Of a DNA stretch of 64,000 nt, positions 1 to 27,426 are shown in pieces. The notes under the pieces are model-generated. The model was not told the origin of the DNA. It made no database searches and worked only from the letters and a program-made list of their open reading frames with translations. The stretch comes from Pocillopora verrucosa (taxonomy: Eukaryota > Cnidaria > Anthozoa > Scleractinia > Pocilloporidae): contig NC_089319.1 of the NCBI RefSeq assembly GCF_036669915.1, positions 18,783,885-18,847,884 of the forward strand, given 5' to 3'. Each line of letters begins with the position of its first letter. Positions within the stretch are counted from its first letter, which is position 1. Position numbers and translations under genes: made by a program.

Positions 1-8
1 ATGTACAG

Positions 9-625
9 TGAGAAGCTGCCAGCAGCTGAAAACCCTTGGAGCGAATCAGAATGGCATTTATGAAATCAACCCAGATGGTCAAGGGGTCATAAACGTGTAC
101 TGTGACCAAACCACAGATGGAGGTGGGTGGACTGTGGTTCAGAGACGTTCCCGTCCATACGAGCAAAGCTTTAGACGAACGTGGGTAGAGTATCGAGTAG
201 GCTTTGGCGACTTGTCCAAAGAATTCTGGCTTGGAAACGACAACTTGCACCGAATCGCCTCTTCTGACAGCATTCTTCGAATAGATCTGCACCGAACCAA
301 CGGCACAAAGGGATATGCCAAATATCATGGGTTTCGGGTAGCTGACGAAACAGAAAAGTATCGATGCGACATGACTTCGTACGAAGGAAACATCGGAAAT
401 GGGTTTTATGGAAATACAGATCCTAAATTGAACATCCGAGGGATGAAATTCGGCACACCAGACCAAGATAATGACAACTTCCTTGAAAAGTGTTTTCCTC
501 ATGGTGCATGGTGGGCAAACCAATGTGGCGAGGTTAATCTCAATGCAAGGAATGGTCCATTCTGGCTTCCTTGGGCTACTAACCCTGACCTAAATCTCTC
601 TGAGATGAAAGTAAGGCATAACTGA
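9..625 (+). CDS. PAN-EGF-fibrinogen gene copy 1, last exon only (partial)
   Basis: This is the final exon of a secreted fibrinogen-related protein; the earlier exons lie before the window. It opens after an AG acceptor at 7-8 and runs 617 bases to a TGA, exactly the length of the matching exon in copies 2 and 3. The fibrinogen C-terminal domain is clear: VYCDQTTDGGGWTVVQRR near the start, EFWLGNDNLHRI, the calcium-loop-like TPDQDNDN, the paired cysteines around GAWWANQCG, and a closing SEMKVRHN. The reading frame is open, so this exon is not visibly damaged, but the state of the rest of the gene is unknown. Such domains bind sugars or acetyl groups in animal innate lectins (ficolins, tachylectins); that role is only inferred. 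Two AATAAA signals near 1142 and 1152 could end the transcript. Confidence 0.85.
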
Positions 626-1914
626 ACAAACCTGCTGTAGTCACCATACGTCACCTTCAGGGATTCAAGGAACTCGACGAAGAGATCTGGGCACTAACTA
701 ATGTAGCCTTCATAGAATTTGCGATGGCAACTCAAGTTGTCATGTAACGCCCGGTTCTGCGTAGCGTTACAACCAAAAACAGCTGCGAAGGTGACTGAGA
801 TCCATTGATATACTATTAGCATAATAATATATTGACACATAATTTAGTCTTGCACTAGGTTTTAAATATCGACATGAAATCGCTTTCTTCAACTTGAAAT
901 GAAATGTGAAACCTTTCCTTCCAATGGTGATGTTCCATTAGCACCCTACGAACAGATGTCACACATTATAAACAGACCATCATGTTTAATCCTGTTTCAA
1001 GACACCAAGAGACCAAAACAAAGTGAAGCGATCAAAAGCAAACCTTGAAGTCACAGGCCAACCACATGTTTCAAGAACTGTTATTTACAAATGGTCGGGT
1101 TTTATAGCCGTGTTAGTGAAAAAGGCTTTTACTTTCTTGAAAATAAAAATCAATAAAAAATAAAGCCTTGGCAACTTCCCTGAACTTCTAAGCATGTCTT
1201 TATATCATAGTAATTTAATAGCCCACGAATATGTAACAAGTGTGACGCCAGTTGTTGCCATCGATGCTGGAAGTATGTACATACAAAAAGCACATTTCCT
1301 GAAGGACTGTTAAAACTATCCGTAAAAGAGGCCAGTATGTTACTTTACAGACTTAATTACCACAGTCGTTAGAGAAAGGCAAAATAAAAGTAATGCTTTC
1401 TGAATTGTTTTGAGGGGCGTCGGAATATTTTGGCTGCTAAATCCTCCGCGAACCTGATCTCCTCCCTTCAAAGTATTGTCGAGCAAAAAAAAAATTAGAC
1501 CAAAAAAAAGGATTGTAAGTTAGATAACGAAGGGGGGAGGGCCTCTTCTCCAGGGTTCTATCTGTTTTTTCTTAAGGTTCATGTTGGAGAGGACTGGGAA
1601 ACAGGTTGACATCGCGATTTCACATTCAGCCTAAGGATTTAATCGATCGAGTTTAAATCCCAACACCCACACCATCTTATGATGATCCCCCATTGTTGAA
1701 AATAACACATCAAAAGGGTTGATGAATAGTTCGTTCTGCCAGTCATTATACGACGACAAAAAAAAACGACGGCAACACATTCTTAAAATCTCCCATTTCT
1801 AAATGCAAACAAAATCTACAAATCAGTAACTATCAATACTGTAGAAAATCGATTAATTCATATCCTTGACGTGATAAAACAAATTTCACGCATCTGAGAT
1901 CGCGATTCTTTCCT
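626..1914. repeat. Segmental-duplication flank downstream of fibrinogen copy 1
   Basis: No gene seen. The first 600 bases closely match the DNA after copy 2 (9470-10098) and after copy 3 (20628-21225). The later part continues to match 21225-21905. Similarity to the copy 3 flank stops at about 1914, where the sequence switches to match the region around 13.7 kb. Confidence 0.8.
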
Positions 1915-1924
1915 CCAAAAACAA

Positions 1925-1995
1925 AAAAACAATACATTGCCATTGGGAAAACAGATTTGTTTTACAATAGTATGGGGCTGTACAGAAATTTTACC
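1925..1995. mobile_element. Truncated MITE (GGTAAAATTTC-end family) at a duplication breakpoint
   Basis: This is the right half of the same short element that is complete at 13636-13772 and 41691-41825. Its left half is missing exactly where the flank of fibrinogen copy 1 ends. Confidence 0.6.
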
Positions 1996-2104
1996 CAAAA
2001 CGTTTCTACTTCTCATAAATAAGCATAGTTGGCTCCGAGGAGACCACTGTGTCGGCTTTTCCCTTACCCCACCCCACTGGATCGCCAATTTCATCTCCTC
2101 TCAC

Positions 2105-2453
2105 CTCTGGTTACTGGCTCTCATCAGCTGTCTTCTCGCATCCTTGTAAATCAACTGGGGCATCGCGTGTTTTTCTCATTTCACGAATATTAGCAAGCTG
2201 CTCTCTCCAGTTAAGGGGCTGCCAAGTTGAACCTTGTGTCTGTTCCGTGGATGTGTCTTTTTTACGCTTTTTGGCCTCAACATCTTCAGTTTTCTTGTCG
2301 TTCCTGGACGAGCCTTCTTCATGTCGCTTCTCGTATTCGATTTTGATGTGCCTTCTTGGTTCCTTTTGGTTTGTTGAAAAAGCTGCCATTGCTTCTCTAG
2401 CCGCCGAGCGTGTTTGTATTTCTTTTTGAGGTAAAATACGGGGAAGCACTCAT
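2105..2453 (-). pseudogene. NTHL1: NTHL1 (endonuclease III homologue) first exon, broken copy A
   Basis: On the minus strand this matches the N-terminal part of NTHL1, the bifunctional DNA glycosylase/AP lyase that removes oxidised pyrimidines. A basic, Lys/Arg-rich leader (KKRKKD) is followed by WQPLNWREQLANIREMR and DAPVD, the block just before the catalytic domain in animal NTHL1. It starts at ATG 2453 (MSASPYFTSK). Compared with copy B it has one extra base near 2421-2430 that breaks the frame after about ten codons. A TAA stands just before what looks like the exon's donor (GAG|GTGAGA at 2105/2104). No later exons follow; the next DNA belongs to fibrinogen copy 1's flank. It is therefore a stranded exon left by the segmental duplication. 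The identification is from recalled family sequence, not a search. Confidence 0.72.
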
Positions 2454-2589: not shown

Positions 2590-4234
2590 ACTCGACCAGC
2601 TGATTACGTAATTAGTCACTACAAAAAGCCGGAGATTTGCCGAAGAATAAAACTAATTCCCTATCAGCACATCCTCTCCATTGAATTTTCTCCACACGGA
2701 AGAACAAAGAATAGGCATCAACAAGAGAATAGAAACTTTACAATCTCTTGTTTGGCATCAAATATCGTCTGATGAAATTTTACTGAAAATTCTGAGCTTA
2801 AGAAGTGTTCATGATTAAAATTTACACGAACTTGAGTGGCAAGCATGAAAATAATGAAACATCAAAATTTTACTATATTAAAACAACAAACTAAATCAAT
2901 GGTTTTAACAGAAACTAATTAACATTTAGATGGGGCGGTTTAGATGAAATGAATGAGATTGGAAGGGAGTCGTCCTTAGATCATGATTTAATGATAATTG
3001 ACAAGAAGATTGCGCTGTTTTAAACCTTAGTTTCTACATGTTCGTCCAATTCAGTTAAATAGTGACTGAAAAAATAAGTTACAAAAAGGCTAACTACACG
3101 AGATATAACTTTTTCCATCAATCTTCTATGGCGCTTTGATTTGTCTTTTCTCTTCCCCAGTGTTAACTCCAAAGGTGTTTGTCCGTCTCGCTGTAAATAA
3201 TTTATTATGGAGTTCAAAAGTCAAAATAGGTATTGTTTTCTTCCGTGTTAGGATGAGGCATTTGCAAATATGTCTCACCCGGTGTATACTAAATAATTTA
3301 TGTAGAGAGCTGTCTCATCTTATTTCTTCAAACTTTAATATAGAAGCACAACTTTTATTTATTTGTAAGTTTTTCCTTCTAAAAGTTTTATTTATGCTAA
3401 GATTGCGTTTTAAGCGATGTTTAGTCGATCGGTAGGATGTTAACGTTATTCCTGAAGGAGCAGGACGAATCATCAAGCTCATAATTGGGAGTTTGCGTGC
3501 AGTTTGGAAGCAATCAGTATTTATTTCACAAGGATTCAAATTTAGGTTTAGCGTCCTTTAGCGCCTTTGCGTATTTATGTATAAAGAGAATATACCCCTT
3601 ACAGACTATACAGTCAGTATTATTCCGATATTTACCCGATCGTAATAACGTTATTCCTGAACCCAAACAGGAAGAAGCACCAAGCTCAGGATGTAAACTT
3701 TTTATTGCTGAGAGGTTACGTAGCAGGTGAATCAAAGAGATTGCCTAATAAACTAACTTTTAACCTCAGTATGCTTAATATAGCTGGGAACTGGACGTGC
3801 AATAACGAACAGTTTCCCAAGGACCGTCATGTTTTGGTCCCCCGTCTGCTTGCTTTGATGTTTATTTAAAGTAGCGCCTTCGCGCATTTATGTCTAAAGG
3901 TTAAAAATAAATACCCCATACAGTCTCTGCAATTCTTACATTGCGGGTCAGTACCTTTTCGCATCGGGACTTCAAATTTATATGTATATCTCGCCAGGGA
4001 AATACTTAATAATTTATGTAGAGGAGAGCTGACTCATGCTATTTCTTTAAATTTAATAAAAGCAGAATTTTATTTATATGTAGTTTTTCTTTTGAAAATT
4101 TGTACGCTCAGTGCTTGCGTTTTGAACGATCGCGTAAGTGTTATTCCTGAAAGTAGACAAAGTAAGGTCAGGACTTAAACTCTTCAGAGATTGATAAGAG
4201 GTTACACAACGCGCGGATTACCTCAAAATGCTTT

Positions 4235-4442
4235 ACCCTTTAACTCCCATAAGTGACTAACATGTAACTTCTCCCTATAACATCCATACATTACCCGCCA
4301 ACATGTAATGAGAATATTCAAACTTATCATGTGGAAGTTAATAGTCTTGATCTTACACCAAATTCTCGTGACTTATTTACAAGGAAATGTGAAGCAGCTA
4401 GAGGGGAGAATTAACAATCAGATCTTGGGAGTTCAAGGGTCA
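4235..4442. mobile_element. MITE, family A
   Basis: About 205-bp element starting ACCCTTTAACTCCCATAAGT and ending near GAGTTCAAGGGTCA, an imperfect inverted repeat. Internal marker: TTACACCAAATTCTCGTGAC. Confidence 0.7.
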
Positions 4443-5457
4443 ACATAGCTGCGAACTGAACCCACAATAAAGATCAAATAAAACCTTCATGTTTTGTTTC
4501 TTTTTTCTAACATGATCAATCTGTTTTTATCTAATTTTATCTAGTTTTAATTAAATTATATCTTTATAGTTTCAAATTCTGGACTTCTATTATTTAGTTT
4601 TAAATTCTGGACTACTGAACCCAAGGGTAATTATTTACAGGATAAAAGCACCACAAAACCCAGAAAACTGTTAAGTTAATTAATTCCATGGCAATTGAAA
4701 AAAGAGAATGCTATGATTAGCGCACGAACAAGTTCAGTCAGTGAACCAATGTCGTGAAATGTTATCAATGTCTTCCTCAGAAAAAATTTCCTTCTGAAAG
4801 TTTTTTTTTATGATAAAGTTGCGTTTTAAGCGATGTTTAGTCGATCGGTAGGATGTTAACGTTATTCCTGAAGGAGCAGGACGAAGCATCAAGCTCATGA
4901 TTTGGAGTTTACGTGCAGTTTGGAAGCAATCAGCATTTATTTCATAAGGATTCAAATTGAGGTTTAGCGTCCTTTAGCGCCTTTTACGTATTTATGTCTA
5001 AAGAGAATATACCCCTTACGGACTATACAATTCGTACGTTGCGGGTCAGTATTGTTCCGACTTGAATTCACGTTACGTGCGTTCTTTAGGGCCTTCGCGC
5101 ATTTATAGATAAAGGTTAAAAATAAATACCCCAAACAGTCTCTTATTCTTACATTACAATTCTTACATTGCGGGTCAATACCTTTTCGCATCAGGACTTC
5201 CAATTTATACCTATATCTCGCCTGGTAAATACTTAATAATTTATGTAGAGGAGAGCTGACTAACGTTATTTCTTTAAATTTTAATAAAAGCAGAATTTTA
5301 TTCATACGTAGTTTTTCTTTTGAAAATTTGTACGCTAAGCTTGCATTTTGAACGATCGCTTAAGTGTTATTCCTGAAAGTAGACAAAGTAAGGTCAGGAC
5401 TTAAACTCTTCAGAGATTGATAAGAGGTTACATAACGCGCGGATTACCTCAAAATGC

Positions 5458-5668
5458 TTAACCCTTTAACTCTTATAAGTGACTAACATGTAACTTCTCC
5501 CTATAACATCCATACATTACCCGCCAACATGTAATGAGAATATTCAAACTTATCATGTGGAAGTTAATAGTCTTGATCTTACACCAAATTCTCGTGACTT
5601 GTTTACTAGGAAATGTGTAGCAGCTAGAGGGGAGAATTAACAATCAGATCTTGAGAGTTCAAGGGTCA
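5458..5668. mobile_element. MITE, family A (second copy from local tandem duplication)
   Basis: Nearly identical to 4235-4442 and in the same surroundings, so it was copied by the 1.2-kb tandem duplication and did not insert separately. Confidence 0.7.
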
Positions 5669-6328
5669 ACATAGCTGCAAACTGAACCCACAATAAAGAT
5701 CAGATATTCATATTTTGTCTATGTCTATGTCTATGTTTTGTAACATGGTTAATCTGTTTTTATCTAATTTTATCTAGTTTTAACTAAATTCTACCTTTAT
5801 CTAATTTCAAATTCTAGAATTGTATTATTTAGTTTTAAATTCTAGACTACTGAACCCTTGGGTAATTATTTCCAGGATAAAAGCACCACAAAACCCAGAA
5901 AACTGTTAAGTTAATTAATTCATGGCAATTGAGAAAAAAGAGAATGCTATAATTAACACACGAACTGGTTCAGTCAGTGAACCAATGTCGTAAAATGTTA
6001 TCAATGTCTTCCAAAGAAAACCTTGCACACTTATTTTCCCCCTTAAACCGTTTAATCTTTGTTCAATAGAAATTGAAGGGAATCCTTACTAAGTGTGTCA
6101 AATTTTGAACTTGATCGAACTTTTAATAATAAATGTTATTCGCCAGTCTCCTGCTAAGTTTCTAAAACCCAAAACATAAAAAAACTGTGGATGAGAGTTA
6201 TTTTTACTCGAACATTATTCATTTTCAAGCTGACGCACCAGCGACTAATTGAGGTCAAAGCTTCCTTATCACGACTTTATTTCGATCGTGAACTAATTTA
6301 AAAGCCGAGTGGAGGTAACTTGAAAACA

Positions 6329-9300
6329 ATGCAGCGACTCACTTTACTCTTCCATTCTCAGTTTCTCCTGTGCTGGAAGTTTACAACTCCCTCAGCTCAA
6401 AGTCTAACAGGAACGTCGAACCCTGGTCGGTTGTCTTGTTTAAGAAGATCTGAACATCCTGAAAAAGGAAAAGCTTGACTTAAACACTTAATTTGCGCAC
6501 TGCAAATAATGGCAAAAATAGATCTTAGACTACACAAAGATAGAAAACTTGACGCAGAACCAACGTGAACCGAGAAGATTTTTTGAGGTTATTTAACTGA
6601 ATAGTAGAGTTGAAGGTAATGTAATCGTGGTGCCCTGACTTTAATTCATCAGTTACAACACAAACAAATTCAGTTTCGTATTTTAGCGAAAAACACTTTA
6701 ATACCGAGTCGCGAGTCGAAGCACTTCAACTAGCAAATCATTCAGTTATCTTTCTCTTAACGTGAGCTCGTTTCAAGCTGTCAAATTCGGCTTTTCGTGT
6801 CGTGCATTCCTCCCTGACATCGCTTTGCTTGTAGCTGTAATGGAATAAAGTTAATGGTAATGATGGAATTTTATTCACCTTTAAATGGAACTACTTCAAG
6901 TTAACGTGTTTCAGACACGATCAAACTAGAGTAAACGATGGTCAACAAGGACGATGAGGATGAAAAGGAAGACCGGTGATCGAATACGCTGTGATCGGAG
7001 CATAAAATCGTCTGATGAGTGGGAATCTTAATTATAGGGGTTTCCAGAATTAAGAACCAACAACTTTGAAGCCTTGTGTATTCGCTTGTTGTGTATCTAA
7101 GAGTTGCGAACAGCCTAAGATAGAACTGGCCGGAAATTTACGAAAACTGAGTAATTTTCGAAACATGAGAAAAATAATTCCATGTAAAAATATGTTACTA
7201 TCTAAGCAATACTTTTCACTTCCTGTCGGTTTTCAGATGCAAAAACTCACACGGTATGTTAGGAGAACACGAGGAAAAGTTGTAAATCACGACCCGAGGG
7301 TGCATGATTACCAACGTTCCAAGTGCACTGACGCCTAAAAAAGTGATAGAAAGTGCGCCTTCTAGCTTTTAAAAATGGAGCCCTGAGTTTCCTAGTACAA
7401 TGAACGATAGGCTTTCGACCAATCAAAGTGTTCCTAATATATTATAAATTTTTACGATTTTCATCAAGTCGTCAATGTCCTCTTGATTTCTCTCTTTTTG
7501 TTTTATGTAAGATATATCTTGAAGAAAACTCTCATATATGACGATATGTTTGCATCTGTTCCAGGCTACACTCTGGTTAATCACGTGATTGCCACGCACA
7601 CTGTCACGTGCCCGATAGACTGTACGTGGGAATGCCTACGGGATGCACGCTGTCGATCGTTTAATTATGCAAACTCAGGGAAAACATGTGAATTAAGTGA
7701 CCAATCAAAAGCGACAGCCCCAAATGACTTTGTTTTAAGAAAAGGCGTCACTTACTACGAGCCAACGACACAGATGGTGAGTCATAGAAATTTACAGATC
7801 AGTTAGAAACTTAATCATCAGTGCTCAACCTACCAAGCGCAGGAACCTTTGAGGTCTTCGGTTTTTCAAATTCCATCTTCTGAGTAAGGTGGTGTCAAAA
7901 TCATATCGAGAGGTCAAATAAATGCCTTTATCTCAGAGAACGGTATGGCTGCCTAAAACTGAACATTTACACAGAGCAGCGTTTGCAAGACCTTCATTTC
8001 TAGCCCGAAACACAGTAAGTTGAAATGTGGTGGAACTCAGTGGGCGGGAGTACAATTCAGGCAGCAATCGGGCGAATGATTTGAAATTACGAGCAGGAAT
8101 GAAAACTTTAATTTAAACATGCGCACATGAATTGATTCATATAGCAAAAGTTCAAGTCGGAAGTCTAAACGTTGTTAGAAATATCGAATGCTTAATGCAC
8201 TTCAGATATTTTTACCATTTTGACTGGCTAACATTTGCTAAGTGCTTATAATTGGACAGGTGAAATCAAACAATTTGGACATGGAACAGCCAATCAAGCC
8301 GCAAATAAGAGCTGTTTTACTGATAAAAGAACCACTCATTCTCGAGAATTTTGTTATTGACACAATTGATGTCATAAAATGCCTATATTCTAGAAGGAAA
8401 TCCTGGGTAATTATAATTTGCTCAAATAGAGACAAAATCGTTGCTCGATATACAAAACTTTGAAAATATCACACTTCTACACTCATTTTGAAAGAGAAAC
8501 GTTAGCTCTAAGAACGAGAATGTATTTCAACGTAATGAGGTATTGTCATGGTAAGTTTCGCCTTATAAAAGGATGAAAGTACGTTTAACCATTCTTCCCA
8601 TTTTCACCCAGGGAGGAAATAAACCTGTTTGCGCCTCGGCTTTATGCCAAAATGGTGGAACATGTGTTGACGCGTGTTGGAATCCCTGGATGTTCACGTG
8701 TGAATGTCGACAGGATTATAAAGGAGTGTATTGCGAAAAGCACAGCGGAGGTGGGTAACTCGTGACTAAATGGAAGAGAGGAACACTTAAATTTGCGATA
8801 ATTTCCTTAAAGCAACAAGTCTCATATTATGTTTCCTTTGTTCCACGTACAGTGAGAAGCTGTCAGCAGCTGAAAACCCTGGGAGCGAATCAGAGTGGCA
8901 TTTATAAAATCAACCCAGATGGTCAAGGGGTCATAAACGTGTACTGTGACCAAACCACAGATGGAGGTGGGTGGACTGTGGTTCAAAGACGTTCCCGTCC
9001 ATACAAGCAAAGCTTTAGACGAACGTAGGTAGAGTATCGAGTAGGCTTTGGCGACTTGTCCAAAGAATTCTGGCTTGGAAACGACAACTTGCACCGAATC
9101 GCCTCTTCAGACAGCATTCTTCGAATAGATCTGTACCGAACCAACGGCACAAAGGGATATGCCAAATATGGTGGGTTTCGGGTAGCTGACGAAACAGAAA
9201 AGTATCGATGCGACATGACTTCGTACGAAGGAAACATCGGAAATGGGTTTTATGGAAATACAGATCCTAAATTGAACATCCGAGGGATGAAATTCGGCAC

Positions 9301-9469
9301 ACCAGACCAAGATAATGACAACTACCCTGGCAAGTGTTTTCCTGGTGGTGCATGATGGACAAACCAATGTGGCGAGGTTAATCTCAATGCAAGGGATGGT
9401 CCGTACTGGGGTCCCTGGACTTCTCAGCCTTGCCTAAAATTCTCTGAGATGAAAGTAAGGCATAACTGA
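6329..9469 (+). pseudogene. PAN-EGF-fibrinogen gene copy 2, inactivated
   Basis: All four exons are recognisable by comparison with copy 3: signal peptide 6329-6467, PAN/apple 7565-7776, EGF 8612-8750 and fibrinogen 8853-9469. Exon lengths (139, 212, 139, 617) equal those of copy 3. Three lesions are visible. The exon 1 donor reads G|GAAAAG where copy 3 has G|GTAAAG. In the fibrinogen exon a Trp codon is TAG at 9026-9028. A second Trp is TGA at 9353-9355, just before the WTNQCG block. The frame is otherwise kept with no indel, so decay is recent. A truncated PAN-EGF product could still be made if the donor loss were bypassed, but the two stops remove the lectin-like domain. Confidence 0.88.
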
Positions 9470-10098
9470 ACAAAACTGCTATAGTCACCATAGTTCACCT
9501 TCAAGGATGCAAGGAACTCGACGAAGAGATCTGGGCACTAACTATTGTAGCCTTTATAGAATTTGCAATGGCAACTCAAGTTGTCATGTAACGCCCAGTG
9601 CTGCGTGGCGTTACAACCAAAACAGCTGCGAAGGTGACTGAAATCCATTGATATATTATTAGCATAATAATATATTGACACATAATTTAGTCTTGCACTA
9701 GGTTTTAAATATCGACATGAAATCGCTTTCTTCAACTTGAAATGAAATGTGAAACCTTTCCTTCCAATGGTGATGTTTCATTAGCACCCCACGAACAGAT
9801 GTCACACATTATAAACAGACCATTATGTCTAATCCTGTTTCAAGACGCCAAGAGACCAAAACAAAGTGAAGCGATCAAAAGTAAACCTTGAAGTCACAGG
9901 CCAACCACATGTTTCAAAAACTGTTATTTACAAATGGTCTGGTTTTATAGCCGTGTTAGTGAAAAAGGCTTTTACTTTCTTGAAAATAAAAATCATAAAA
10001 AAGTGTTTGTAAAATAAAGCCTCGGCAACTTCCCTGAACTTTCAAGCATATCGTTATATCATACTAATTTAAAAGCCCACGAATATGTAACAAGTGCA
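9470..10098. repeat. Segmental-duplication flank downstream of fibrinogen copy 2
   Basis: No gene. Matches 626-1240 and 20628-21225. At about 10098 the match to the copy 3 flank jumps from about 21224 to 22050, so roughly 825 bases are missing here relative to copy 3. Confidence 0.75.
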
Positions 10099-10603
10099 AA
10101 TCTAACTTGAAGACTCCACACTAAGTTTCTTATACGTAAGTACTATTAGTGCCGATAAAGAGCTGTACCATACAGTTTCTCGTATTGCCAAAATGATTTA
10201 TTTGAGGGTAATAGTGCAGGCCTCACTGCACTCACCCTGTCGTCCATTAACATCAGTAGCACGTACCAAGAAGTGGTACTTATTGCCGGGTGATAACTGA
10301 GTCAGAATGCAAGCCATAGGAAGCGTCAACGCCTTGACGACTCCAATCTTCTTCCACTGGTGAGGGTTCTCCGTTGTGCCGCCGTCCTGAAGGGCAAACA
10401 GTTGCTAGTTCATTGTAGGCGCGTCTCTCCTCAAGAGCCATGTACCACGACAAAACGATACAACTTCGAGCCACCGCTATGGAGACATTAGGTTTCGGAG
10501 GAGGATCTTTAGTCTCTGTTGCAAGAGATACGGGGGATGTTGCCCTAAACTCGGCGGTAGACCCTGTTGGGGTCTTATAGATAATTGTGAATAGCTTTGC
10601 AAG
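10099..10603 (-). pseudogene. ATF7IP: ATF7IP 3'-end fragment (fibronectin III region)
   Basis: This is a duplicate of 22050-22570, the last part of the ATF7IP-like gene. The minus strand still reads KDPPPKPNVSIAVA, ALEER and [17 protein letters not shown]-like pieces of the fibronectin type III domain, but in different frames. It also lacks the short insert present at 22520-22535. Similarity ends abruptly at about 10603 (22570 in the parent), so only the C-terminal part was carried by the segmental duplication and no promoter or upstream exon accompanies it. It is not expected to make protein. Confidence 0.85.
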
Positions 10604-11454
10604 GCGAATAACAAAGGATAAAAGGAGTTTGAGTAGCCAATCAGAGCGCGCCTTCATTGCCATCCACCGTTTAAAGTATAAACTAATTTCTAAATCAAAT
10701 TCAATGGCAGATCTCTCCCTTCAAGGAAGGGGTGCCACTTATAAAACATTTTTCAGAAAAAAGCACCTTGTTACCTAGGTCTCACAGTCTTTGATTTTGC
10801 TTCCATCTTCCCTTTTATCCATTGTATCATGAACCTGTACGTTTATTTTACACAGTCTTGAGACATGGTTTGAGGACCAATGCTAACCTGGGCTAAGTTG
10901 TTGGAGGGCTGATTAGTGCTAACCCAGGGTTCAGTTTTAATTCAGGTTTCCTTACTGCTTTGTTAAAAAGCCTTTTTTGGATAATTTTTTTTTATTTTTT
11001 AAAAGGCATCCAATCATCAAATCGTAGACGAAACAAATTATAATGAATTTTCTTCTATAGCTTTAACCCTATAACTCACAAGATCTGATTATTAATTTCC
11101 TCCTCTACCTGCTTAACATTTCCTTGTAAATTAGTTGTGAGAATTTGGTGTTAGATCAAGATAACAACTTCTACCTTCTCATTACCTGTTTGCTGGATAG
11201 TGCACAGATATTGTAAGGAGAAGTTACATGTGAATCACTTCTGGGAGTTTGAGGGTTAAGATCTGATATCAGATTTCACATTAACCATGAGGCTACCTCA
11301 ACCCAGCTTTGCACAACATGGCCCAGGGCTAAAGACAAGGACAGCCTAAGTTAAAGTAAAACTTAATTTCCCCTTAAATCTTAGTGTCCTTTCTATCCTT
11401 TCTGGGTGAAAGTTTCTTCTTAGTTTCCTCCTCAGCTTTTCCTCTGCTCCTTCT
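10604..11454. other. Gene-free stretch downstream of NTHL1 copy B
   Basis: No coding signal seen. Holds a family A MITE (11063-11259) and AT-rich unique sequence. Confidence 0.5.
11063..11259. mobile_element. MITE, family A
   Basis: Opens TTTAACCCTATAACTCACAA and closes CTTCTGGGAGTTTGAGGGTTA. Contains GAATTTGGTGTTAGATCAAG in the middle; opposite orientation to the copies at 4235 and 5458. Confidence 0.75.
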
Positions 11455-12094
11455 TTAACCTTCAGGACAGATCTTGGAGTTAAGACAGAACTTGCACATT
11501 GGACTTACAGGAAGACATGTCTGTTGACCAAATCTAACCAACAATACATTCAGTTCATCCCACTTCTCTCTGAGAAAACAGAAAAAGAGTTCAATAATTT
11601 AGTCTCTGAAGCCATACACTCTAATTATTTAACTGTTGGTTATGGGTAAACAGCATATGATAGTCAAGGTTTGCTATGCATCTAGAGAATCTTGAACCTA
11701 GGTCTGAAAGTCCTTAAAGTTTTCGTTTTTGCATTCTGCTCCTTGAAAGTCAGGAAGGACCAAAAGCCTGTTTATTTCAGAATATTTGTAAAAGTTGTTT
11801 GGAACTTGCACAATAGCTGGGTCTCTAAAATGTGGCAGTAAGTGAAAAGGCTTTGGCAAGGAAGGAGCAAAACACCTGGTGAAGAGAATTTGTGTAACTT
11901 GGTATCATTCAAAATCACTTTTCACCAGCTTTCTACATCAATTCTAGTTTCCTCTGGCAGTTTAGTACGTTTTTTGACCCATCCTGGTCTGTTAGAAATT
12001 CTATGAACATGAGTATCAACTCCAGTTCCAGTCACTTGTCCCCAAGCCACATTCATGGTAATATGCACCATTTTTGGGCCCACACCTGGAAGTT

Positions 12095-14224: not shown

Positions 14225-17200
14225 CCTGGAAATCCGTGAAACAAACTGATCATATGTTTGAATCGTCAGTCTCCCCTGCATCTGCCTTTACCAGTACTAT
14301 TGTGAACAGTCCTCCCCGTTCTCGCCATGGAACGCTAATTTTGTCGGAAAAGTGATGTCACTCGACCAGCTGATTACGTAAATAGTCACTACATAAAAGC
14401 CGGAGATTTGCCGTAGAATAAAACTAATTCCCTATTAGCACATCCTCTCCATTGAATTTTCTCCACACTGAACCCAAAAGAGCAAAGAATAGGCGTCAAC
14501 AAGAAAATAGAACCTTACAATCTCTTGTTTGGCATCAAATACCATCTGATGAAATTTTACTGAAAATTTTGAGCTTAAGAAGTGTTCATGATTGAAATTT
14601 ACACGAACTTGAGTGGCAAACACGAGAATAATGAAACATCAAAATTTACCATATTAAAACAACAAACTAAATCAATGGTTTTAACAGAAAACCCATGTCA
14701 CTTGCCTTTAGATGGGGCGGTTTCAGATGAAATGAATGAGATTGGAAGGGAGTCGTCTTTAGATCATGATTTAATGATAATTGACAAGAAGATTGCGCTG
14801 TTTTAAACCTAAGTTTCTACATGTTCGTCCGATTCAGTTAAATAGTGACTGAAAAAAGTAAGTTAAAAAAAGGCTAACTACACGAGATATAAATTTTTCC
14901 ATCAATCTTCTATGGCGCTTTGATTTGTCTTTTCTCTTCCCCAGTGTTAACTCCAAAGGTCTTTTTCCGTCTCGCTGTAAATAATTTATTATGGAGTTCA
15001 AAAGTCAAAATAGGTGTTGTTTTCTTCCGTTTTAGGATGAAGCATTTGCACATATGTCTTACCCGGTATATACTAAATAATTTATGTAGAGAGCTGTCTC
15101 ACCTTATTTCTTCAAACTTTAATATAGAAGTACAATTTTTATTTATTTGTAAGTTTTTCCTTCTGAAAGTTTTATTTATGCTAAGATTGCGTTTTAAGCG
15201 ATGTTTAGTCGATCGGTAGGATGTTAATGTTATTCCTGAAGGAACAGGACGAATCATCAAGCTCATAATTTGGAGTTTGCGTGCAGTTTGGAAGCAATCA
15301 GTATTTATTTCACAAGGATTCAAATTGAGGTTTAGCGTCCTTTAGCGCCTTTGCGTATTTATGTATAAAGAGAATATACCCCTTACAGACTATACAATTC
15401 GTACGTTGCGGGTCAGTATTATTCCGATATTTATCCGATCGTAATAACGTTATTCCTGAACCCAAACAGGAAGAAGCACCAAGCTCAGGATGTAAACTTT
15501 TTATTGCTGAGAGGTTACGTAGCAGGTGAATAAAAGAGATTGTCTAATAAACTAACTTTTAACCTCAGTATGCTTAATATAGCTGGGAACTGGACGTGCA
15601 ATAACGAACAGTTTCCCAAGGACCTTCATGTTTTGGTCCCCCGTCTGCTTGCTTTGATGTTTATTTAAAGTAGCGCCTTCGCGCATTTATAGATAAAGGT
15701 TAAAAATAAATACCCCAGTCTCTACAATTCTTACATTGCGGGTCAGTACCTTTTCGCATCGGGACTTCAAATTTATATGTATATCTCGCCTGGCAAATAC
15801 TTAATAATTTATGTAGAGGAGAGCTGACTCACGTTATTTCTTTAAATTTTAAATAAAGCAGAATTTTATTTATATGTAGTTTTTCTTTTGAAAATTTGTA
15901 CGCTAAGCTTGCGTTTTGAACGATGTTTACCTGATCGCTTAAGTGTTATTCCTGAAAGTAGACAAAGTAAGGTCAGGGCTTAAACTCTTTAGAGATTGAT
16001 AAGAGGTTACTTTTAGTTTACCAAAAAGTTAGGTAAATTAACTTTTAACCTCAGTATGCTTAATAAAGCTGGCAACAAGACGTGCAATAACGAAGTTTCC
16101 CAAGGACCTTCATGTTTTGGCCCCCTGTTGGCTTGCTTTGATGTTAATTTAAAGTAGACTTGAATTCACGTTACGTGTGTTCTTTAGCGCCTTCGCACAT
16201 TTATGTCTAAAGGTTAAAATAAATACCCTATACAGTCTCTACAATTCTTACATTGCGGGTCAGTACTTTTTCGCATCAGGACTTCAAATTTATTCGTATA
16301 TCTCGCCTAGTAAGTACTTAATAATTCATGTAGACGAGAGCTGTCTCACGCTATTTCTTTAAATTTTAATAAAAGCGGAATTTTATTTATATGAAGTTTT
16401 TCTTTGGAAAATTTGTACGCTAAGCTTTCGTTTTGAACGATGTTTACCTGATCGCTAAAGTGTTATTCCTGAAAGTAGACAAAGTAAGGTCAGGACTTTA
16501 ACTCTTCAGAGAATGATAAGAGGTTACATAACGTGCATATGACATCAAAATGCTTTACCCATTAACTCCCATAAGTGACTAACATGTAACTTCTCCCTGT
16601 AACATTCACGCGTTATCCAGCCAACATGTAATGACAATACTCAAACTCATTGGGTAGAAGTTACACCAAATTCTCGTGACTTATTTACAAGGAAATGTGT
16701 AGCAGCTAGAGAGGAGAATTAACAATCAGATCTTGGGAGTTCAAGGGTCGTTAATATAGCTGCAAACTAAACCCACAATAAAGATCAGACAGGGCAAACC
16801 CTTCATGTTTTGTCTCTCTTTTTCAATATGGGTGAAAGTTTTTAACTAATTTTGTCTGGTTTTAAATTCTATCTTTACCTAGTTTTAAATTCTAGACATT
16901 CTACTATTATCTGGTTTTAAATTCTAGACTACTGAACCCAAGGGTAATTATTTGCAGGATAAAAGCACCACAAACCCGGAAAACTGTTAAGTTAATTAAT
17001 TCCATGGCAATTTAAAAGAAAAAGAATGTTATAATTACCGCACGAACTGGTTCAGTCAGTGAACCAATGTCGTGAAATGTTATCAATGTCTTCCTCAGAA
17101 AACCATGCTCACTTATTTCCCCCCCTTAAACCGTTTAATCTTTCTTCAATAGAAATAGAAGAGAATCCTCAATAAGTATGTCAAATTTTGAAGTTGATCG

Positions 17201-17412: not shown

Positions 17413-20400
17413 ATGCAGCGACTCACTTTACTCTTCCATTCTCAGTTTCTCCTGTGCTGGAAGTTTGCAACTCCCTCAGCTCAAAGTCTAACAGGAACGT
17501 CAAACCCTGGTCGGTTGTCTTGTTTAAGAAGATCTGAACATCCTGAAAGAGGTAAAGCTTGACTCAAACACTTAATATGCGCACCGTAAATAATGGCAAA
17601 AATAAATCTTAGACTACACAAAGAATAAAAAACTTGACGCAGAACCAATGCGAACCGAGAAGATTTGTTGAGACTATTTAAATAGTGGGGTTGAAGGTAA
17701 TGTAATCGTGATGCGCTGACTTTAATTCATCAGTTACAACACAAGCAAATTCAGTTTCGTATTTTAGCGAAAAACACCTAAATACCGAGTCGCGAGTCGA
17801 AGTACTTCAACTAGCAAAGCATTCAGTTATTTTTCTCTTAACGTGAGTTAGTTTCAAGCTGTCAAAATCGGCTTTTAGTGTCGTGCATTCCTCTCTGGTA
17901 TCGCTTCGCTTGTAGCTGTAATGGAATAAAGTTAACTTCGCTCGAAAATCTCAGAGATGAACTCTTTTCACTTGTATGGTCACTTTTAGTAATGATGGAA
18001 TTTTATTCACCTTCGAACGGAACTACTACCATGGCCAACAAGGACGATGAGGATGAAAAGGAAGACCGGTGATCGAATTCGCTGTGATCGGAGCATAAAA
18101 TCGTCTGATGAGTGGGAATCTTAATTAGAGGGGTTTCCAGAATTAAGAACCAACAACTTTGAAAGCTTGTGTATTCCCTTGTTGTGTATCGAAGAGTTGC
18201 GAACAGCCTAAGATAGAACTGGCCGGAAATTTACGAAAACTGAGTAATTTTCGAAACATGAGAAAAATAATTCCATGTAAAAATATGTTAATATCTAAGC
18301 AATACTTTTCACTTCCTGTCGGTTTTCAGACGCAAAAACTCGCACGGTATGTTAAGAGAGCACAAGGAAAAGTTGTAAATCACGACCCGAGGGTGCATGA
18401 TTACCAACGTTCCAAGTGCACTGACGCCTAAAAAAATATAGAAAGTGCGCTTTCTAGCTTTTAAAAATGGAGCCCTGAGTTTACTAGTACAATGAACGAT
18501 AGGCTTTCGATAAATCAAAGCGTTCCTAATATCTTATAAATTTTTACGACTTTCATCAAGTCGTCGATGTCCTCTTGATTTCTCTCTTTTTGTTTATGTA
18601 AGATATATCTTGAAGAAAACTCTCATATATGACCATATGTTTGCATCTGTTCTAGGCTACACTCTGGTTAATCACGTGATTGCTACGCCCACTGTCACGT
18701 GCCCGATAGACTGTACGTGGGAATGCCTACGGGATGCACGCTGTCGATCGCTTAATTATGCAAGCTCAGGGAAAACATGTGAATTAAGTGACCAATCAAA
18801 AGCGACAGCCCCAAATGACTTTGTTTTAAGAAAAGGCGTCACTTACTACGAGCCAACGACACAGATGGTGAGTCAGAAATTTACAGATCAGTTAGAAACT
18901 TAATCATCACTGGCTCAAACTGCCAAGCGCAAGAACCTTTGAAGTCTTCGGTTTTTCAAATTCCATCTTCTGAGCAAGGTGGTGTCAAAGTCATATCGAG
19001 AGGTCAATAAATGCCTTTATCTCAGAGAACTGTATGGCTGCCTAAAACTGAACATTTACACAGAGCAGCGTTTGTAAGACCTTCATTTCTAGCCCGAAAA
19101 CACAGTAAGTTGAAATGTAGTAGGGCGGGAGTACAATTCAGGCAGCAATCGGGAGAATGATTTGAAATTACGAGCAGGAATGAAAACTTTAAATTACACA
19201 TGCGCAGTTGATTCATATAGCAAAAGTTCAGGTCGTAAGTCTAAATATTGTTATAAAACATCCAATGCTCAATGCACTTCAGAAATTTTTTCCATTTTGA
19301 CTGGCTAACATTTGCTAAGTGCTTATAATTGAACAGTTGACATCAAACAATTCGGACATGAAACAGCCAATCAAGCCGCAAATAAGAGCTGTTTTATTGA
19401 TAAGAGAACCACTCATACTCGAGCATTTTGTTATTGACACAATTGATGTCATAAAATGCCCATTTTCTAAAAGGAAATCCCGGGTAAATATAATTTGCTA
19501 AAATAGAGACAAAATTGTTGGTCGATATACACCGGAAACGAAATTTCATTTGAAGGAAAACAGGAGAGAGAAAGATGAATTCCTACTCAAAACTTTGGAA
19601 ATATCAAACTTCTAAACTCATCTTGAATTAAGGGTACAGACCACCACCAAAGAGAACGGTTAGCTCTAAGAACGAGAATGTATTTCAACCTAATGAGGTA
19701 TTGTCATGGTAAATTTCACCTTATAAAAGGATGAAAGTACGTTTAACCATTCTTCCCATTTTCTCCCAGGGAGGAAATAAACCTGTTTGCGCCTCAGCTT
19801 TATGCCAAAATGGTGGAACATGTGTTGACACGTGTTGGAATCTCCGGATGTTCACGTGTGAATGTCGACAGGATTATAAAGGAGTGTATTGCGAAAAGCA
19901 CAGCGGAGGTGGGTAACTCGTGACTAAATAGAAGAGAGGAACACTTAAATTTGCGATAATTTCCTTAAAGCAACAAGTCTCATATTATGTTTCTTTTGTT
20001 TTATGTACAGTGAGAAGCTGCCAGCAGCTGAAAATCCTGGGAGCGAATCAGAATGGCATTTATAAAATCAACCCAGATGGTCAAGGGGTCATAAACGTGT
20101 ACTGTGACCAAACCACAGATGGAGGAGGATGGACTGTGGTTCAGAGACGTTCCCGTCCATACAAGCAAAACTTTGAACGAACGTGGGTAGAGTATCGAGT
20201 AGGCTTTGGCGACTTGTCCAAAGAATTCTGGCTTGGAAACGACAACTTGCACCGAATCGCCTCTTCAGACAGCATTCTTCGGATAGAGCTGCACCGAACC
20301 AACGGCCAGAAGGGATATGCCAAATATGGTGGGTTTCGGGTAGCTGACGAAACAGAAAAGTATCGATGCGACATGAGTTCGTACGAAGGAAACATCGGAA

Positions 20401-20627
20401 ATGGATTTTATGGGAAGACAAATCCTAACCTGAACACCCGAGGGATGAAATTTGGTACACCAGACCAAGATAACGACAACTACTCTGGCAAGTGTTTTCC
20501 TTATGGTGGATGGTGGGCAAACCAGTGTGGTGAGGTTAATCCCAATGCAAGGGGTGGTCCATTCTGGCATCCTTGGGCTTCTAATTCTAACCTAAAATTC
20601 TCTGAGATGAAAGTAAGGCATAACTGA
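17413..20627 (+). CDS. Secreted PAN-EGF-fibrinogen domain protein, copy 3 (intact)
   Basis: Four exons: 17413-17551, 18656-18867, 19770-19908, 20011-20627. Introns have GT-AG ends, phases agree, and the coding total of 1107 bases gives 368 residues. Residues 1 to about 26 are a signal peptide (MQRLTLLFHSQFLLCWKF). Residues 47-117 form a PAN/apple domain (CPIDCTWECLRDARCRS). Residues 118-163 form an EGF repeat (CQNGGTCVD and CECRQDYKGVYC). Residues 164-368 form a fibrinogen C-terminal domain with GGGWTVVQRR, FWLGNDNLH, TPDQDNDN and WWANQCG. The start follows AAAACA and is the only ATG giving a leader. No transmembrane segment, so probably secreted. Relatives act as pattern-recognition lectins or matrix proteins; the ligand cannot be told here. 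It is the only complete copy of at least three. Confidence 0.9.
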
Positions 20628-22150: not shown

Positions 22151-25100
22151 TCACTTGAGCGTAATAGTGCAGGCCTCACTGCACTCACCCTGTCGTCCAT
22201 TAACATCAGTAGCACGTACCAAGAAGTGGTACTTATTGCCAGGTGAAAACTGAGTCAGAGTGCAAGCCATAGGAAGCGGCAACGCCTTGACGACTCCAAT
22301 CTTCTTCCACTGGTGAGGGTTCTCCGTTGTTCCGCCGTCCTGAAGGGCAAACAGTTGATAGTTCATTATAGGCGCGTGTCTCTCCTCAAGAGCCATGTAC
22401 CACGACAAAACGATACCGCTTGGAGCCACCGCTATGGAGACATTAGGTTTCGGAGGGGGGTCTTTAGCTTCTGTTGCTGGAGATACAGGGGGATGTTGCC
22501 CTGAACCCGGCGGTAGACCCTGTTGGGCAGGCTGTTGGGGTCCTATAGGTACTTGTGCATAGCTTTGCTGGGGAACTGAAGGTTGAGGTGGAGCAACTTG
22601 TCTTGGAGGTCCAACCACTTGTTGATAATGCCCCATACCGGGCTGTTGAGAGTGAGGTGAAGCTTGCTGGTTTACCGCATGGGGAGGAGACTGCATTTGC
22701 ACCGGTGTATTCTGTCTTACCAAGACTGGAGGGAGGTTTCGTTGAGGGTGTTGTTGTTCTTGACGATGAGGTTGTTGCATCATATGTTGAGGCTGCGACG
22801 CTTGAATAGGGGACTGTGGATAAGCGGGTCTAGGTACTTGTGAGACTTGAGGGGGGGCACCCTGAGGAGGCTGGGGTGCTTGAGCTCTTATCTGTGGAGC
22901 CACAGGAAATCTTGGGCTATGCTGCCCGTTATGATAAGCATTTTGTGTGTTGTAACCATACGAAGGCAACTCATGTGGACCCCGGACAGATGTGGAACTA
23001 GATGGAGTTTGTGGATGAACCGTCACCGTAGGCAACGGGCGGGAAGGAGTTGGAGCAACACTACGTGGTCCAGGAAGGCTAGTGATGGGTCGCTGTATCC
23101 TCATCATCGGCCTTGGTGGCTGAACACTTGGCGGAGGAGGGGCTCTTACGCCATTAAACCCTGACTGACCCGAAGAGAAGTGGCGCACAGGTGGAGCAGG
23201 ACCCCTTGGCACTGCCGCCTGAGTGGGTGTGGGTCGGAGCGCTGGCCCAGGGACGTAATTGGCTCCCGACGCGATAGGTGCTTGTGGACGAGGCGAGACG
23301 TTTGACGCAACAGGGATACGAGGACGCACAGGCTCCGACTGCCTCTGAGTCGCAGGGCGATAGTTAACGGGAGCTGATTGCGGTACTGTGTGACCAGGCA
23401 AAGGTGCTACGGTGGAGGTGAGCCGTGGTGTTGGTGTAGTCATAACATTGATACTAGCATTTGAGGGCCTGGAAGCTGTTAAACTCGCTGGGGGAGATGG
23501 TGCGTTCACAGTCTTCGTGCGCAGAGCGTTCATCTACAAAACGATAACCAATTGACAGTCACTGGTAAAGGACAAGACATGTAATACTTTACGTTTGTTG
23601 ATTCCAACGATTAAATAAAGGATGAGTCCACTGAACGTCAAGGGTGTTCTGCCTAGTATGTCACTGTGGACTACTTGTTTTATACTTTTGCTGAAACAAA
23701 ATATCAAAATAAACAAACCCAAAAAAATTTTTGTTTCTGAACAACGTTTTCAAAACCGCCCATTTCTTCCTAAAAAATGGATTGGCTAGGTCTAGTTATT
23801 CACCGCTTTGCTGCTAGTCTCCTTCGCAGTCGTTGTTTGGTCTTGTCACGCAATGCGCTCTCTCCGTGTTGCGTGACGAGAATAAACAACGGCCGAGAAG
23901 GAGACTACCTTGTTACTGGCCTAAGGAAATTTACTTACCCAGTTAAGATCTTGGGTTTGAACAGCTTTAGTTTCTCGTTTCTTTGCTTTTAAGCTCTCAG
24001 CTTTTAAAATCGTTTTTACAGAATCTTCTACTCTCTTTGCGTACTCTTTCAATGCTTTGTTCTCCTTCTCAAGTGCAGCTAGCCTAACGGAGAGCTTGTC
24101 GTTCGGGCTGTCATCATCCATTGACTGCTGGATTTGACTCATCCTCTCTTGGATCATTTTCTTGACCATCTAAGATACGTGAAGATTAGTTCAAGATAGA
24201 AGCTGCATGTGAATGTAATTAAGACTTCAACGAACCCAGTTTTAAAATTCAGGCAGTTGGTGAAAACTTTTCAATTGTCCATGTTCTCGCTGGCGCGGCC
24301 GTATCTTATTTACTTCCAACCCAATGTTCGGAATTCGATAAACCTACCCTTGGAGTTATATTAATCCCTCTAATTTTCCCGATCAACATACAACTTCTGG
24401 CTACAATCATCCGGCAGTTGATGACATAAGGCCTTCATATCAGGGTGGGTTATTGTTAGCGTTATTTTCATGTAACTCAGATTTTTTTTAACCACTTTGG
24501 AAGAGAGTGAATAGTTGCTGGAAGGGACAATTAAGCTTCAGATCTTTGGGAATAATTGGTTCAAATTCAACAGGTTTAAAAGGCGTTTCCTGACAACATT
24601 TCGAATCATCTTCAGCTGTAAAAAAAAAAACATTTTGTAACAGAAGAGAAGTCTCTCAGATAATTCACCAAGGGTGGCAAAACAGAAATTGATGAGAAGA
24701 TAGAAAACTGTTTGAATCAAAACAAAATAATTGGAGCGAAAATTAGTGAAAAGTATGGCGACTAGTATGTGTTTTAACTCAACTTTCCGTGTACGTAAAG
24801 CATGATCTTATTCTGGAGGGTAGCAGTCTGACAAATTAGAAGCACTAAAAAACGAAAAAAAAAAAAAAAAAACAGCGAAAAGCTTACTTGTCTGAATTCG
24901 TCTGAATTAAAATTGAAGTCCTTTGTAGTTTCCTCTGCGTTAGCACTGGGAGCCAGGTCTGAAAAAGACGGTGAATTTCGATCCTTCACAGTAGTTTTAT
25001 CATTATCCGCTGGCCCTTTGTTCCCTTCTAACAAATTGATTTCCCCATTCACATGGACAGGCTTAGCGCCAGGGTTTAAGGGGCACGTTTGATCGCCTTC

Positions 25101-27426
25101 TTCCAAAACTTCCACCAAGGAATCCTGATTTAAAGTCCTAGCATCCGTGGTGACTCCATTAGAAAGCTTTTTACTTGAAGATTCGTCTAATTTCGCCACA
25201 AGTCTGACACACGCCTTTTGGCGATCAGAGGAGGTTAGTTCTGAAGTGTTTTCAAGTATCGGAAGATTCGTATCTCCCAGTTTACTCGACCGCGGAGGCG
25301 TAGACAACATTTTGAAATCTAATGGTTTAGGCGAATGAGCCGGTGATGAGCCAGCGGACGATATAATGAGATCAGGGCTTGGGCTGTTTGCATCGTTCGA
25401 CGAGTGTATCTCCGGGTTCGGTTCCTTTGCAGGTCCTTTACATCGAAGTATCTTGCTGCCGTTAGGTTTAGGTTGAGGGAGAAAATTCTTTTGACAGTCA
25501 ATTGTAATCTGGCGGAGTCGGTCAAATCTGGACGGATTAAATTGCAGATGGGAAAGTGGTCGAGTGGAAGCTGCATCGCTTGTTCCAATAGAATCTCCAT
25601 TGGTCATCACATGGTTTGGCGCTGGAGAAAAAGGAAATTGAAATTTGGTTCAGGTTTAAGCTTTCAGCATGTCTACGAGTAATCATCAGCTTTAAAACAA
25701 GGCCACTGGCCGTTGTGAAATAAAGGAATAAACGCTTGAACTAACGAGAACTAATGTTCAATCTATTGGACGAGTCAAAGAGTGCCAAACGCAGCAGTGA
25801 AATGCGTCTTTCTTTAGTTATTCTTGGCTTAGCATAAACTGTTTCTAGACGAGCAGTGATTAAAAACTGCCTGGAAGATTTGGCAGTAATGCCAAACGGC
25901 TTTGTTGCAGCTCATATTTATCATTGCTGGATCAAAGTTCTCGTTGCTGTAGCTCGATAAAAGGACTCTAGATTTTGACTCTTGGCTAACAAAAAAGTGA
26001 ACTTTGATTAAGAAGAGGAACACAACCTCTACCGACAAAACTTCGAGCAACCTCGTTTTCCTTCATACTCTGAATGAGACAACCGCTCTAGAAACCAAGA
26101 CACATCGCTTGCCCTTGATTTGCGAGCTTAAACCTCGAGTTAAGTCACTCAAAAATCACTACTGTGCACTCCTTTTGAGGCGTGGCGCAGTTAAATGACA
26201 AACCACATTTGATGCGTTTCAAAACGAGTGCAGTCTGAGAGCAGATGGGGGAGAAGGGCTACTATAAAAAATTCATCCGGGAATAAAGCCTGTAGAAAAA
26301 AACAATACAGGGACCAGAGAAGTGTTCTACTGGTTTCTTTCTTGCGTAAGTGTTGAGGTGTTGACGTTAAAAAGTAGGACATCTTTGACTTTTGCGGGGT
26401 TGAGAAAGGACGTTTTTAAGAGATGGTCAGCGACCAGAAGAGTGCAAACTGCTTCTGGCGTGTTTTGTAATCAACAGGTCAGTTGGATAGCCCTTGTTCT
26501 AGCATCGTTATGGTCTAAATGCTTGACTGAACAATATATACTGGATGCAATCTCGAGACAACGTGGCAAACCAAACAACAGGGCCCAGTTGTTTTAAGGA
26601 CGGATAACGCTGTCCACTAGATGAATCACTATCCAGCGGATAAGTGTTAACATAACGTACTGTGCCACTCAACGGATAGAGATTTTTATCCAATGGATAG
26701 CGTTATCCACCCTACGAACAATCGGAGCCAGGTGAGCACAAACAGAAGGAAGAAAGAGAGAAGATGGAAGGGAAAAAAGTATACTTAAAAACCAATATGG
26801 CCATTTTTTACTGCTCTTCACTTGGAAAAAAAAACGTCCCTGCCGAGCACTACTGAGTCGATAAAGCCAACCCTTTTTACTCTAAGGAGTGACCTAAAAA
26901 ATAATCTCTCCATACAAAATAAGTACCGTACTTATGTGACATTTTCAAACTGAAAGAGGGTGAGAATATAGAAAAACATCAATATGGGAATTTTGTAAGA
27001 TTGAATACCAAATTCTCAGAAGAATGCATGGGAGACAGTAAAAAAAGTTGATATTCAAATGTTGGGAATGAGAGGGATAAAAAGATAGGTGTAAATAATG
27101 AATCTCGCCGCTGCAAAAAAATGTAGTCGTCTAATGTGCTCTAAAAAATACGCGGAGTAGACTAGATCTAAGAATCAGCGACACAGTTACAGCTGGTCGA
27201 AGTCCAACCCTTAGCCGCACGTGACGTTCAATAAGAACTCAAAACGTTTTCGACTTACTTGAGGCAGCACCTCCACCATCAACTTTCCTAAAAATTAAAA
27301 ATAATCGCAACCAATTAAATATTTAATACAAAAAAGATACATAAACGATTGAATGACACGCGGACAGAGTTATGCTGTGTTACTGATTCCTTACCGCTTC
27401 TTCTTTGCTATCTCTAGCTCCTCCAT
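22151..27426 (-). CDS. ATF7IP: ATF7IP-like (MCAF1) chromatin-silencing cofactor
   Basis: Five exons: 27426-27395, 27287-27259, 25621-24888, 24169-23939, 23533-22151. Phases agree and the total is 803 codons. ATF7IP bridges SETDB1 and MBD1 for H3K9 methylation in the nucleus. The C-terminal 110 residues are a fibronectin III domain (PPPKPNVSIAVAPSGIVLSW, then [16 protein letters not shown]). Before it lies a Pro/Gln-rich stretch of about 350 residues. Exon 4 is a coiled coil (MIQERMSQIQQ, LAALEKENKALKEYAKRVE). Exon 3 is acidic, Ser-rich and disordered. Residues 8-14 read KKKRKVD, a classical nuclear signal split over the first intron. The start ATG has an in-frame TAG 12 bases upstream. A possible extra exon near 24617-24500 (EDDSKCCQETPF) has a good acceptor but the wrong phase, so I leave it out. 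The gene is shorter than human ATF7IP, near ATF7IP2 in size. The family call rests on the C-terminal domain order. Confidence 0.78.
23815..23907. mobile_element. Small palindromic element (CTCCTTCGCAG family)
   Basis: Left end TAGTCTCCTTCGCAGTCGTT is the near inverse of the right end AACGGCCGAGAAGGAGACTA; about 93 bp, in an ATF7IP intron. Relatives at 31904-31974 and 52351-52417. Confidence 0.65.
26578..26726. mobile_element. Inverted-repeat element (GGATAACGCT family)
   Basis: GGGCCCAGTTGTTTTAAGGA and GGATAACGCTGTCCA on the left face GGATAGCGTTATCCACC on the right. Related to 37721-37874, which ends in ACTGGGCCC. Confidence 0.55.

What the first reader, a model, noticed from the sequence alone, without database searches (positions are those of the whole stretch)
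1..27426. Alternating remnants of an NTHL1 / fibrinogen-gene / ATF7IP block
The order along the window is fibrinogen 1, NTHL1 exon 1, fibrinogen 2, ATF7IP tail, NTHL1, fibrinogen 3, ATF7IP. This is what tandem duplication of a three-gene block followed by unequal exchange and deletion would leave. Only the fibrinogen gene has been multiplied whole; its two neighbours were carried along and broke. The locus is a snapshot of how an immune-type lectin family grows at the cost of passenger genes.
Basis: partly seen in the sequence, partly recalled or inferred. Interest (0 to 1): 0.7.

Follow-up and report, generated by a model that had tools for sequence, protein, structure and literature searches.

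The report
Tandem-duplicated fibrinogen gene with passenger fragments
A fibrinogen-domain gene was copied in tandem together with pieces of its two neighbours, and most of the extra copies seen here have decayed; it is an ordinary, well-preserved example of how gene clusters grow and die.

Summary
The gene order in the finding is real. NTHL1 exon 1 (1918-4205) matches 13691-16010; the PAN-EGF-fibrinogen gene (5059-10099) matches 16157-21221; the fibrinogen exon occurs three times (from 1, 8845 and 20003); an ATF7IP tail (10098-10600) matches 22050-22568. Three junctions were mapped; at the two comparable on both sides only a few bases are shared. Copies 1 and 2 are closest (K 0.054); copy 3 is further (about 0.10). 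Simplest history: two nested tandem duplications plus one 0.83 kb deletion, with patchy exchange or uneven rates.

Two parts of the interpretation fail. Fibrinogen was not simply multiplied whole: copy 2 has two premature stops, copy 1 shows only its last exon, and no signal-peptide exon was found for copies 2 or 3. And passengers need not pay: tandem duplication leaves one original of each flanking gene. ATF7IP at the right end keeps long open exons. Both NTHL1 copies in the window are disabled, so a working NTHL1, if any, should lie to the left. No relative, read or left flank could be examined.

The parts
1..1926 (+). Copy A: last (fibrinogen-domain) exon of fibrinogen gene 1, open to its stop at 623-625, plus 3' flank; upstream exons lie left of the window
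1910..1926 (.). Junction J1: downstream flank of fibrinogen (equivalent of about 21913) joined to NTHL1 intron 1 (equivalent of 13691) in an A-rich stretch; only a few bases of possible homology
2097..2453 (-). NTHL1 exon 1 duplicate: frame shifted near the N-terminus and a stop near the exon end; no further NTHL1 exon found beside it in the window
3372..6020 (.). Local tandem duplication inside the B block (3372-3612 = 4787-5029; 3872-4784 = 5087-6020)
7537..9469 (+). Copy B: fibrinogen gene 2; PAN exon (open from 7537 or before) and EGF exon (from about 8612) open, fibrinogen exon with stops at 9026 and 9353: pseudogene or truncated product
10098..10099 (.). Junction J2: 0.83 kb present in copy C (21222-22049) missing between fibrinogen 2 and the ATF7IP tail; overlap of a few bases
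10100..10602 (-). ATF7IP tail duplicate: end of the last coding exon plus 3' flank, frame broken
10600..10606 (.). Junction J3: ATF7IP tail joined to sequence beyond the 3' end of NTHL1; the right side has no second copy in the window
11374..14224 (-). Full-length NTHL1 copy, decayed: premature stop in exon 1 (within 13966-13977), exon-1 splice donor lost (inferred from a 5-base gap), a stop directly before the exon-2 frame, frame broken below 12253; catalytic and cysteine motifs still readable
15548..16527 (.). Local tandem duplication inside the C block (15548-16010 = 16034-16527)
18628..20627 (+). Copy C: fibrinogen gene 3; PAN exon (to 18867), EGF exon (from 19770) and fibrinogen exon (from about 20011, inferred acceptor), all open; no signal-peptide exon found upstream
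22154..25649 (-). ATF7IP-like gene, large exons open (22154-23533 with the fn3_4 domain; 23924-24169 coiled-coil-like; 24777-25649); splice sites not checked

Best explanation
The locus is a small tandem array made by two nested duplications. The starting order was NTHL1(-), PAN-EGF-fibrinogen gene(+), ATF7IP(-). Duplication 1 copied from beyond the 3' end of NTHL1 to a point inside the last coding exon of ATF7IP, giving NTHL1-fib-ATF7IPtail | NTHL1-fib-ATF7IP. Duplication 2, later and inside the left block, copied from NTHL1 intron 1 to just past the fibrinogen 3' flank, giving fib1 | exon1-fib2. A 0.83 kb deletion joined fib2 to the ATF7IP tail. Copies later exchanged patches (inferred) and redundant ones decayed: the second NTHL1, its orphan exon 1, fib2 and the ATF7IP tail. 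Shown: repeat map, junctions, copy relationships, lesions. Inferred: order of events, mechanism (end joining or replication-based at J1 and J2, since there is no long homology there), and an intact NTHL1 and the rest of fib1 to the left.
For: Repeat map. Homology stops abruptly on both sides of J1 and J2 with only a few shared bases, and on the left side of J3. In the shared 1.2 kb, of 146 variable among 1207 ungapped sites A and B agree against C at 81, B and C against A at 34, A and C against B at 27, and all three differ at 4. K2P A-B 0.054 (1239 sites), A-C 0.105 (1205 sites), B-C 0.102 (1217 sites). The exon-1 lesions noted are each in one NTHL1 copy only, so the exon was probably sound when duplicated. 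ATF7IP at the right end keeps long open exons, as the geometry of tandem duplication predicts.
Against: Divergence is uneven. The NTHL1-exon-1 segment is K 0.0545 from its C copy, while the fibrinogen 3' part is about 0.10 (Fisher p 3.5e-6 on counts); PAN+EGF show 2 synonymous differences in about 79 sites against 16 in 133 in the fibrinogen exon (p 0.02). A-C over the whole 1-1926 is 0.151, and 1251-1500 is only 69% identical. A plain two-step history predicts one age for B versus C, so conversion, a further exchange or uneven rates must be added. No outgroup, left flank or reads were available.
Confidence: 0.72

Rival explanations
1. One larger duplication was followed by an exchange between misaligned copies that made J1, so that the NTHL1-exon-1 part of block B came from block C while its fibrinogen end came from block A.
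For: The NTHL1-exon-1 segment is as close to C (K 0.0545) as fib1 is to fib2 (0.054), while fib2 is 0.10 from fib3.
Against: At J1 the two sides share only a few bases, unlike homologous unequal exchange, and fib2 is still followed by the ATF7IP tail.
Confidence: 0.15
2. The array is an assembly artefact, for example unmerged haplotypes or a mis-join.
For: No reads were available; not excluded directly.
Against: Copies differ by about 5-15% (K 0.054 to 0.151), carry different lesions and show three different junctions; haplotypes would be expected to be closer and collinear (general knowledge).
Confidence: 0.05
3. Segments were inserted by transposition or retroposition rather than by tandem duplication.
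For: Dispersed repeats of about 200 bp lie within the blocks.
Against: Introns and flanks are copied in the same order and orientation; the dispersed repeats reported do not sit at J1, J2 or J3.
Confidence: 0.03

Closest known systems
Tandem gene-family expansion with hitchhiking neighbours in Acropora (PMC12314368; term passages seen)
   Same: Tandem copies in a small region with unrelated neighbouring sequence copied along; becoming a pseudogene is given as one neutral fate
   Different: That paper proposes non-allelic homologous recombination; J1 and J2 here show no long homology. 'Fibrinogen' does not occur in its main text
Pervasive tandem duplications in coral genomes (PMC10236652; title, start of abstract and term passages seen)
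   Same: Tandem duplication; lectin-type families among those amplified
   Different: 'Fibrinogen' and 'pseudogene' do not occur in its main text
Fibrinogen gamma chain, tenascin, ficolin, angiopoietin, tachylectin and FIBCD1 fibrinogen domains
   Same: Fibrinogen-type domain: best match fibrinogen gamma, E 6.2e-33; tenascin-R 1.8e-32, ficolin-1 1.1e-31, angiopoietin-1 2.8e-30, tachylectin-5A 5.2e-28, FIBCD1 3.2e-27 (60 of 68 matches shown)
   Different: Preceded here by PAN and EGF exons; no one family stands out, so the lectin label is not established

Membership tests
Fibrinogen-related domain proteins | Pfam Fibrinogen_C domain | tested here: met
   Fib1 E 1.6e-51, fib3 E 1.1e-52; fib2 fragment E 7.5e-28
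Fibrinogen-related domain proteins | Open fibrinogen exon in copy 2 | tested here: not met
   Stops at 9026 and 9353; the exon is open in copies 1 and 3
Secreted immune-type lectin | Signal peptide | tested here: inconclusive
   No convincing signal-peptide exon upstream of the PAN exon in B or C; copy A not visible
Secreted immune-type lectin | Carbohydrate or acetyl-group binding | not testable with these tools
   Needs a binding assay
NTHL1 (endonuclease III-like) | HhH-GPD domain with GVGPK and VDTHVHR motifs and four-cysteine iron-sulphur loop (roles named from recall) | tested here: met
   HhH-GPD E 5.7e-09 on a composite; human NTHL1 E 2.3e-62 on a composite; motifs readable
NTHL1 (endonuclease III-like) | Open reading frame | tested here: not met
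   Stop in exon 1, donor gap, frame breaks
ATF7IP | C-terminal fn3_4 domain (link to ATF7IP from recall) | tested here: met
   E 3.4e-31
ATF7IP | SETDB1 binding | not testable with these tools
   A coiled-coil-like exon is present, with weak Pfam matches below cut-off only; binding not tested

The most novel reading that the evidence does not exclude
This animal has lost working NTHL1: both copies in the window are disabled by different lesions, and if the leftmost original is gone too, growth of the fibrinogen array would really have cost the genome a base-excision-repair glycosylase.
Probability: 0.1. Interest if true: 0.55.

Novelty: new member of a known kind. Interest (0 to 1): 0.25.

Why it matters
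It is a clear case of how tandem duplication trims the neighbours it carries and how redundant copies then decay one by one. It would matter more if the left flank showed that the only NTHL1 has been lost.

Tried and rejected
Rejected: 'three whole fibrinogen genes' (two stops in copy 2; only the last exon of copy 1 is in view; no signal-peptide exon found for copies 2 and 3 in two scans). Rejected as a needed step: loss of the passengers, since a tandem duplication keeps one original of each.

Led nowhere: the family search of the window's own genome (nine identical requests unanswered). Literature, judged by listings (titles and starts of abstracts): searches (13 papers held the terms, 13 listed; 58, 15 listed; 2, 2 listed; 22, 10 listed; 5, 5 listed) showed no paper that looked like a description of this locus. 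Three papers were searched for terms: PMC10236652, PMC12314368, PMC8260672; none was read whole. The ATF7IP exon gave no PDB match at E 0.01. The prokaryote, viral, phage, plasmid and E. coli collections were not searched, since the window looks like animal DNA.

Selection (premature stops left out): fibrinogen-exon dN/dS is 1.05 for A-B, 0.53 for A-C, 0.50 for B-C; PAN 1.49 and EGF 0.70 for B-C on very few changes. B, which carries stops, gives nearly the same ratio to C as A does, so this is weak evidence for constraint.

Full report
What is there. A blastn self-comparison (E at most 1e-20, matches of 150 bases or more shown) gives kilobase-long direct repeats over 1-22568. They define three copies of a fibrinogen-domain exon (from 1, 8845 and 20003), two copies of a segment with NTHL1 exon 1 (1918-4205 and 13691-16010), two copies of the PAN-EGF-fibrinogen gene body (5059-10099 and 16157-21221) and two copies of the ATF7IP 3' end (10098-10600 and 22050-22568). 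At that threshold the NTHL1 exons at 11374-12384 and the ATF7IP exons above 22568 have no second copy in the window. Identity of the genes rests on Pfam and on a PDB match of a composite query to human NTHL1; ATF7IP rests on the fn3_4 domain, which I recall as typical of that family.

Junctions. J1 (about 1917) joins sequence equivalent to 21913, just past the fibrinogen 3' flank, to NTHL1 intron 1 at the equivalent of 13691. J2 (10098) skips 0.83 kb between fibrinogen and ATF7IP. J3 (about 10602) joins the inside of the ATF7IP last coding exon to sequence beyond the NTHL1 3' end. At J1 and J2 the two sides share only a few bases; at J3 only one side can be compared. This points to end joining or a replication-based mechanism rather than recombination between long repeats (inference).

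Order of events. In the 1.2 kb shared by all three fibrinogen copies, 146 of 1207 ungapped sites vary: A and B agree against C at 81, B and C against A at 34, A and C against B at 27, and all three differ at 4. K2P is 0.054 for A-B, 0.105 for A-C and 0.102 for B-C. So A and B are closest and, with roughly even rates, C is the older branch. Two nested tandem duplications and one deletion then give the observed order without further steps.

Results against a clean two-step history. The NTHL1-exon-1 segment of block B is only 0.0545 from block C (2273 sites), the PAN side 0.089, the stretch with the fibrinogen exon 0.088 and the ATF7IP tail 0.076. The PAN and EGF exons have 2 synonymous differences in about 79 sites against 16 in 133 in the fibrinogen exon. 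Differences are clumped in 4 of 4 segments (variance to mean 2.1 to 6.3 per 100 sites), partly from poorly aligned stretches. A run test found one identical stretch, 145 sites from 7674, beyond chance (3 of 2000 permutations); the longest runs of the other three segments were reached in 913, 62 and 94 of 2000, uncorrected. Gene conversion, a later exchange, constraint or uneven rates could each contribute; without an outgroup they cannot be told apart.

State of the copies. Fibrinogen 3 has open PAN, EGF and fibrinogen exons with workable splice sites. Fibrinogen 2 keeps open PAN and EGF exons, but its fibrinogen exon has stops at 9026 and 9353. Fibrinogen 1 is seen only from its last exon, which is open. 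No signal-peptide exon was recognised in front of fibrinogen 2 or 3, so even copy 3 is not shown to be whole. The full-length NTHL1 is decayed: a stop in exon 1, a 5-base gap where the other copy has its exon-1 donor, a stop directly before the exon-2 frame, and broken frames beyond it. The orphan exon 1 has a shifted frame and a stop of its own. The exon-1 lesions I noted are each in one copy only, so the exon was probably sound when copied. The ATF7IP tail has a broken frame. ATF7IP at the right end has long open exons; its splice sites were not checked.

Interpretation. A tandem duplication with breakpoints inside its neighbours leaves the original of each neighbour complete at the outer ends and puts fragments only at the junction. 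The passengers therefore did not have to break for the array to grow. This fits ATF7IP. It predicts a complete NTHL1 and the rest of fibrinogen 1 to the left of the window, which could not be seen: the own-genome search did not complete in nine tries.

Compared with what is known. Pervasive tandem duplication in coral genomes is in print (PMC10236652; title, start of abstract and term passages). Copying of unrelated neighbours by hitchhiking, with pseudogenes as one fate, is proposed for Acropora (PMC12314368; term passages). This locus looks like a further instance. It differs in that two of its three junctions show no long homology on both sides. Whether the protein is a lectin is not shown: its fibrinogen domain matches fibrinogen, tenascin, ficolin, angiopoietin, tachylectin and FIBCD1 chains with E-values from 6e-33 to 3e-27.

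Noticed in passing
38413-41160 (-): A helix-hairpin-helix exon (HHH_3, E 1.4e-12) and a Ydc2-type resolvase-like exon (E 7.8e-06) on the same strand, the architecture that I recall for mitochondrial transcription elongation factor TEFM.
   Followed up: no
44705-58110 (-): Exons of one or more ABCA-type transporter genes: R1_ABCA1 at 44705-45106 (E 2.5e-27) and ABC_tran at 53948-54241 (E 3.5e-08); the wider range is my reading of the ORFs.
   Followed up: no
59715-60557 (+): Protein with a weak Tim44-like match (E 1.3e-4, below the curated cut-off).
   Followed up: no
58300-59181: Tandem array of about 60-63 bp units.
   Followed up: no
4231, 5457, 11063, 16553, 34558, 53129, 57031 (starts): Dispersed repeat of about 200 bp in both orientations, looking like a MITE family; not at the three junctions.
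   Followed up: partly
7537-9025 (+): The stops of fibrinogen 2 fall in what looks like its last exon, so a transcript could escape nonsense-mediated decay and give a PAN-EGF protein without most of the fibrinogen domain (inference).
   Followed up: no
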